IMG/VR virus record: IMGVR_UViG_3300023174_000379
Coordinates: 1-36,389 of that record
DNA: 36,389 bases
Strand: one strand, 5' to 3'
From: a virus
Positions 22,277 through 22,512 of this stretch are shown here, piece by piece. Under the pieces are notes generated by a model. The model worked only from the letters and a program-made list of their open reading frames with translations, was not told the DNA's origin and searched no databases. Numbering within the stretch: the stretch's first letter is position 1; each line of letters opens with the position of its first letter. The position numbers and the translations under genes were made by a program.

Positions 22277-22512
22277 CACCTAGCGGATCGGGAACGACAT
22301 AAACAGTCTCCGAATCCGACGTCTGCGAAAGCGCGGACGATAAAACCCGGTTCGTTGCCACCGGTTCAAGTTTTGGCAACAGTGCAGGGAGTGGGCTTTA
22401 TGCTTATTCTATACGGTTTAGGGGCGGCTCGGAGCGAGCATCCCCCTATGCGCTTCAGGGTCAGTCGCATAGGATGAAACGAACCGGGGTTGATCCCCGG
22501 TTTTATTTTGTC
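22277..22512 (+). ncRNA. structured non-coding RNA, about 230 bases, promoter to terminator
   Basis: No credible long ORF between a near-consensus promoter and an intrinsic terminator. Predicted hairpins in order: CGGATCGG/CCGAATCCG with a bulge; CGTCTGC-GAAAGC-GCGGACG; GTTGCCA/TGGCAAC; TAGGGG/CCCCTA containing GCTCG-GAG-CGAGC; CCTATGCG/CGCATAGG sharing bases with it; then the terminator. A 25-codon ORF at 22400-22477 with AGGGAG upstream is an alternative reading of its second half. No match to a known RNA family is recognised. Confidence 0.6.
22482..22510 (+). terminator. intrinsic terminator of the structured RNA
   Basis: AACCGGGG-TTGAT-CCCCGGTT followed by TTATTTTG. Confidence 0.85.

What the first reader, a model, noticed from the sequence alone, without database searches (positions are those of the whole stretch)
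22277..22512. Orphan structured RNA of about 230 bases
A consensus promoter, at least five stable hairpins, an intrinsic terminator and no good ORF. Two hairpins share bases, so two alternative folds are possible. It lies next to the duplicated cassette, between it and the palindromes.
Basis: partly seen in the sequence, partly recalled or inferred. Interest (0 to 1): 0.7.

Follow-up and report, generated by a model that had tools for sequence, protein, structure and literature searches.

The report
Phage small RNA behind regulator gene
An uncultured phage carries a real, structured small-RNA gene tucked between a probable regulator gene and its transcription stop signal; relatives keep its promoter and one hairpin, but its target is unknown and it looks like a new example of a known kind of RNA.

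Summary
The window (36 kb, uncultured phage) has a near-consensus sigma-70 promoter at 22242-22270. It is followed by a 236-nt stretch that folds better than all 200 shuffles (z -3.9) and ends in an intrinsic terminator. Fold energy alone is weak evidence, because nearby palindromes fold even better. The useful evidence is comparative. One diverged relative (two contigs with the same RNA sequence) has a ~186-nt homologue in the same place. Its promoter is the best-conserved stretch. Hairpin H3 keeps all 8 pairs with 5 compensatory changes and an equal-length, near-identical loop; the terminator keeps 9 of 9 with 2. The 5' half (~105 nt), the 25-codon ORF and the alternative folds are not conserved. 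A more distant phage lacks the RNA, and there the upstream gene runs straight into its terminator.

So this is an RNA gene set between a 131-aa gene (probably AbrB/MazE-like) and a terminator that the two must share. It resembles bacterial sRNAs made from 3' UTRs by their own promoter. No Rfam family passes its cut-off, and no copy was found in annotated phages, plasmids or bacterial genomes. Best mechanism: a trans-acting base-pairing sRNA using the H3 loop (AGGGUCAG); target unknown.

The parts
21834..22229 (+). Upstream 131-aa gene (second of two paralogues); likely AbrB/MazE-like C-terminal domain; no terminator between its stop and the RNA promoter
   Evidence: weak fold matches to MazE/VapB/AbrB, all E > 1
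22242..22270 (+). Sigma-70-type promoter TTGACA-17-TACAAT
   Evidence: best-conserved stretch between window and L004
22255..22277 (.). Inverted repeat GCCCCC(C)...GGGGGC spanning the -10 box; operator-like, G-rich discriminator
   Evidence: invariant in window, L002, L003, L004
22277..22382 (+). 5' domain of the RNA, variable: not alignable with L004, where it is about 50 nt
22388..22410 (+). Hairpin H1, holding the purine-rich SD-like stretch and the AUG of the small ORF; the relative has a different hairpin with GUG at this place
22400..22477 (+). 25-codon ORF (MLILYGLGAARSEHPPMRFRVSRIG), not conserved as a peptide
22421..22445 (+). Hairpin H2, GGGG-GCUCG/CGAGC-CCCC; the relative has GGG-GCGGC/GCCGC-CCC at the corresponding place
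22445..22473 (+). Hairpin H3, 8 bp with 13-nt loop CUUCAGGGUCAGU; 8 of 8 pairs kept, 5 compensatory double changes; proposed seed or protein site
22481..22512 (+). Intrinsic terminator and U tract, 9 of 9 pairs kept, 2 compensatory; must also end the upstream gene's mRNA
   Evidence: L009 comparison

Best explanation
A phage-encoded small RNA gene lies inside the 3' UTR of a regulator-like gene. A sigma-70 promoter 12 nt after the stop codon of the 131-aa gene starts a primary transcript at about 22277. The transcript ends at the intrinsic terminator 22481-22503, which is the only one available to the upstream mRNA, so the same RNA can also form the tail of that mRNA. The functional part is the conserved 3' domain. 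I infer that the conserved loop of hairpin H3 (AGGGUCAG), held out by an 8-bp stem just before the terminator, base-pairs with a host or phage mRNA, as in bacterial 3'-UTR-derived sRNAs. The invariant palindrome over the -10 box suggests repressor control of the promoter, possibly by the neighbouring AbrB/MazE-like protein. Shown by sequence: promoter, terminator, nesting, conserved promoter, covarying H3. Inferred: transcription, base-pairing, target, autoregulation.
For: Homologue in L002/L004 in the same place with the promoter as the most conserved stretch. 17 of 17 pairs of H3 plus terminator kept, with 7 double changes. Sliding the partners by 1-3 columns leaves 28-46% paired and 0-1 double changes. 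Shuffling the partners reached the observed value in 4 of 500. MAFFT made this alignment without structure. A rough null gives about 1e-4 for H3 and 2e-3 for the terminator. L009 lacks the RNA, and its gene reads straight into a terminator with the same downstream motif TTTTGTCAAGTGGGGTTGTGTGA. The ORF shows no third-position bias (2/3/3 changes by codon position) while the neighbouring gene does (28/36/70). Precedents: MicX, DapZ and MicL use promoters in or near the parent gene (PMC9438474); SorX and ArgX (abstract) sit at the 3' end of transcription-factor genes.
Against: No transcript data. Only two distinct full-length sequences, so covariation rests on one comparison. L003 stops 43 nt into the RNA, and its similarity there lies in a recently shared block that starts inside the gene near 22100, so it says nothing about selection. 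The U tract is interrupted. A simple target scan found nothing convincing, and the H3-loop complement occurs only in the RNA's own antisense strand in the loci held. The homologue's own fold is only z -1.7.
Confidence: 0.5

Rival explanations
1. It is the mRNA of a tiny protein (25 codons), perhaps a dual-function RNA or a leader peptide with its start site folded into H1.
For: SD-like AGGGAG 8 nt before AUG; the relative has GAGGAG 6 nt before GUG at the aligned place; the first nine codons share L-Y-x-L-G.
Against: The frame is lost after about nine codons through unequal indels. Changes show no third-position bias. The peptides are 25 and 19 aa with different C-termini. RNA pairing, not the peptide, is what is kept in H3.
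Confidence: 0.15
2. It is only a long 3' UTR with a stable terminator plus a promoter that makes a by-product; the RNA has no function of its own.
For: It is missing in L009, where the gene has a plain terminator. The 5' half is not conserved. The island is full of palindromes with low fold energy.
Against: The promoter is more conserved than the gene, and H3 covaries with a conserved loop; neither is expected of a by-product.
Confidence: 0.18
3. It is a structured RNA that works by binding a protein (decoy or scaffold), for example a host RNA-binding protein or the adjacent AbrB/MazE-like protein.
For: Conserved hairpin loop and very high structure.
Against: No repeated protein-binding motif is conserved: GGA motifs differ between the two RNAs (sequence). 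No Rfam match at its cut-off to 6S, CsrB or others.
Confidence: 0.12
4. It is a cis-acting terminator/antiterminator switch: 22346-22356 pairs with the terminator arm 22478-22488.
For: Exact 11-nt complement; in the window the 5' domain pairs with the terminator region better than 99.4% of shuffles.
Against: 3.7 kcal/mol worse than the terminator fold, probability 0.06. In L004 the pairing is no better than shuffles (0.87 as good). No gene on the + strand follows that a switch would serve.
Confidence: 0.05

Closest known systems
3'-UTR-nested sRNAs with their own promoter (MicX, DapZ, MicL; review PMC9438474)
   Same: Promoter in or next to the end of a coding gene, RNA ends at that gene's terminator, structured, of similar size
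   Different: Here in a phage; promoter lies just after, not inside, the ORF; no chaperone or target known; no sequence relation found
SorX (RF02784), Rhodobacter 3'-UTR sRNA of an OmpR-type regulator gene
   Same: Hairpin with a GGGUCA loop followed by a GC-rich terminator; 3' end of a transcription-factor gene
   Different: 28.8 bits against a cut-off of 46.6; lacks the CCUCCC-containing linker; the homologue L004 does not match. Probably chance.
ArgX, 3'-UTR sRNA of argR in Lactococcus (PMC6586332)
   Same: Regulator gene immediately followed by an sRNA
   Different: Different organism, no sequence relation shown; used only as a precedent
Rfam-annotated phage RNAs (cyanophage CFrI, wcaG, PhotoRC-II, AbiF; PMC9964418)
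   Same: RNAs encoded by phages
   Different: No Rfam family other than tRNA matched at its cut-off here

Membership tests
3'-UTR-nested sRNA with own promoter | Own promoter at or near the end of the upstream gene | tested here: met
   TTGACA-17-TACAAT 12 nt after the stop codon, conserved in three phages; as a sequence pattern only
3'-UTR-nested sRNA with own promoter | Shares the terminator of the upstream mRNA | tested here: met
   No room for another terminator (stop 22229, promoter 22242); in L009 the gene is followed directly by the corresponding terminator
3'-UTR-nested sRNA with own promoter | Stable primary transcript with 5' triphosphate | not testable with these tools
   needs RNA from infected cells
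3'-UTR-nested sRNA with own promoter | Conserved seed that pairs with a target mRNA | tested here: inconclusive
   Conserved H3 loop, but no target in the loci held
3'-UTR-nested sRNA with own promoter | Binding to Hfq or ProQ | not testable with these tools
   host unknown; U tract interrupted
SorX (RF02784) | Score at or above the Rfam gathering cut-off (46.6 bits) | tested here: not met
   28.8 bits in the window, no match in L004
L2-Alphaproteobacteria leader (RF03142) | Score at or above cut-off (37.8 bits) | tested here: not met
   19.2 bits in L004 only, match includes the promoter DNA
6S RNA and other Rfam RNAs | Gathering-score match | tested here: not met
   only tRNAs in the whole window
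Dual-function RNA / type I toxin mRNA | Conserved small ORF under protein-level selection | tested here: not met
   frame lost, no third-position bias, peptide not hydrophobic

The most novel reading that the evidence does not exclude
A new phage RNA family, co-inherited with an AbrB/MazE-like gene, whose palindromic promoter is repressed by that protein and whose H3 loop imitates a host sRNA seed (GGGUCA, as in SorX) to redirect host gene expression during infection.
Probability: 0.05. Interest if true: 0.65.

Novelty: new member of a known kind. Interest (0 to 1): 0.35.

Why it matters
Few phage-encoded sRNAs are defined outside model phages, and 3'-UTR-nested ones in phages are little described. 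This one has a clear anatomy, a covarying hairpin with a conserved loop, and a relative that lacks it, so loss and gain can be compared. It would become testable once a host for this phage group is known.

Tried and rejected
Searches without relatives: blastn of 21800-22560 in annotated phages and plasmids, tblastn of the 131-aa protein in phages, protein and DNA-pattern scans of bacterial and archaeal genomes. DNA patterns for the promoter, the 3' domain, H3 and the post-terminator motif in viral contigs returned only the phages already known plus chance hits that the covariance model rejects. The model found the RNA only in the window, L002 and L004, with nothing further in the full L002, L003, L004 and L009 records; weaker matches elsewhere are other terminators. 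Fold energy as proof: rejected, nearby palindromes score lower. Selection from window-L003 identity (42 of 43): rejected, it lies in a recently shared block and 19% of windows in the orthologous island are as similar. Antiterminator: rejected as a conserved feature. SorX and L2-leader membership: rejected. Target search by duplex energy: dominated by antisense and GC content, uninformative. Fold search for the 131-aa protein: no significant hit; MazE, VapB and AbrB are among the best but all have E > 1.

Full report
What was claimed and what is there. The window is an IMG/VR virus record of 36,389 bases: AT-rich phage DNA with a GC-rich island at about 17-23 kb. Within the island, 22277-22512 lies 3' of the second of two paralogous 131-aa genes. 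A near-consensus promoter (22242-22270) and an intrinsic terminator (22481-22503) bracket it. Its predicted fold is -93.2 kcal/mol, z -3.9, with no shuffle as low. No Rfam family reaches its cut-off. Fold energy alone is not persuasive, because windows across the neighbouring palindromes reach z -6.6.

Relatives. The 131-aa protein is found in four other virus contigs: L002, L003, L004 and L009. Two of these (L002, L004) have the same sequence through this RNA and carry a homologue in the same place. L003 ends 43 nt into it. L009 lacks it. No relative was found in annotated phages, plasmids or bacterial and archaeal genomes. A covariance model of the 3' domain finds only the window, L002 and L004 with convincing scores. 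The evidence therefore rests on two distinct complete sequences.

What is conserved. Between the window and L004 the promoter, with the palindrome GCCCCC...TACAAT...GGGGGC, is the best-conserved stretch, about 0.88 identity in its 43-nt window against 0.44-0.79 in the gene. The 5' domain is not alignable (window about 105 nt, L004 about 50 nt). The 3' domain is about 0.5-0.75 identical. In MAFFT's structure-blind alignment, hairpin H3 (22445-22473) and the terminator keep all 17 pairs, with 7 double changes. Sliding the partners destroys this, and 4 of 500 shuffles reach it. The H3 loop has equal length and is 11 of 13 identical (C[UG]U[CU]AGGGUCAGU). H2 also has a counterpart with a different stem sequence, but its alignment is ambiguous and I do not count it. 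Both RNAs fold the start of the small ORF into a hairpin, but not the same one.

Small ORF. The 25-codon ORF (22400-22477) aligns with a 19-codon ORF that starts with GTG. Both have SD-like sequences and the first nine codons resemble each other. The frame then breaks, and the changes by codon position are 2/3/3, against 28/36/70 in the 131-aa gene next door. Protein-level selection is not supported; a dual function is not excluded.

Alternative folds. H2 and H3 compete for one base. A stronger alternative, an exact 11-nt pairing of 22346-22356 with the terminator arm 22478-22488, exists in the window (3.7 kcal/mol worse, probability 0.06). It has no counterpart in L004, where the 5' domain pairs with the terminator no better than shuffles do. 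The alternative fold is therefore real on paper but not conserved.

Place in the transcript. Only 12 bases separate the gene's stop codon from the -35 box in the window, and about as few in the other phages that have the RNA. In L009 the corresponding gene is followed at once by a terminator and the same downstream motif, TTTTGTCAAGTGGGGTTGTGTGA. The RNA gene thus sits between a gene and a terminator that both must use. This is the anatomy of an sRNA in a 3' UTR with its own promoter; MicX, DapZ and MicL are precedents, and SorX and ArgX lie at the 3' ends of regulator genes (PMC9438474; PMC6586332 abstract). The 131-aa protein has no significant family or fold match, but its C-terminal half gives MazE, VapB and AbrB among the best, non-significant, fold hits. 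By eye it reads like an AbrB-type hairpin domain. I treat it as probably DNA-binding (inference).

Mechanism. Most likely a trans-acting, base-pairing small RNA that presents the H3 loop, made from a repressible promoter and also carried as the tail of the regulator's mRNA (0.5). Rivals: a by-product (0.18), a small-protein mRNA (0.15), a protein decoy (0.12), a terminator switch (0.05). No target is known: the complement of the loop is not found elsewhere in the loci held.

Known families. SorX scores 28.8 bits against a cut-off of 46.6 and fails in the homologue. The L2 leader scores 19.2 against 37.8 and only in the homologue, across promoter DNA. Neither is a membership. The RNA is a new sequence family of a known kind.

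Limits. Near-identity with L003 was considered and discarded as evidence, because the identical block starts inside the gene at about 22100.

Noticed in passing
17710-22692 (14 sites; eight 57-nt palindromes such as 18476-18532): Intergenic imperfect palindromes whose arms match the sigma-54 -24/-12 consensus TGGCAY-N5-TTGC and point outwards: 14 matches, 0.18 expected. They recur in L002, L003, L004 and L009. The arm at 22566-22552 points left, so it could make an antisense of the RNA.
   Followed up: partly
17223, 17692, 18406, 18611, 19921, 20526, 21627, 22715, 22793 (starts): CRP-like boxes GTGA-N6-TCAC next to many of the palindromes: 9 found, 0.34 expected.
   Followed up: partly
17000-23000: GC-rich island (48-57% GC) in phage DNA of 28-38% GC. 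It is built as a gene-terminator-CRP box-palindrome array whose gene content differs between related phages, reminiscent of a cassette array.
   Followed up: partly
19427-19825 and 21834-22229: Two paralogous 131/132-aa genes kept as a pair in L003, L004 and L009; possible AbrB/MazE-like domain at the C-terminus.
   Followed up: partly
about 22100: Recombination boundary against L003: identity jumps from about 0.5-0.8 to 0.93-1.0 inside the 131-aa gene.
   Followed up: no
1164-1248 (-): ARAGORN reports a tRNA with a four-base anticodon (gtag) in a small tRNA cluster; Rfam does not list it.
   Followed up: no
11806-12063, 12491-12760, 25300-25566, 26371-26619, 27306-27563, 31089-31667, 32541-32798, 33214-33465, 35331-35830 (all -): Many apparently paralogous ORFs of about 85 aa with 'GDL/GDM' near the start and several ending in 'HYPVVK' or similar: an expanded unknown family.
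   Followed up: no
22604-23700: AT-rich stretch with many short repeats (CTCTATA, TATACT) right after the last palindromes, present in L004 and L009 too; could be a replication or control region.
   Followed up: no
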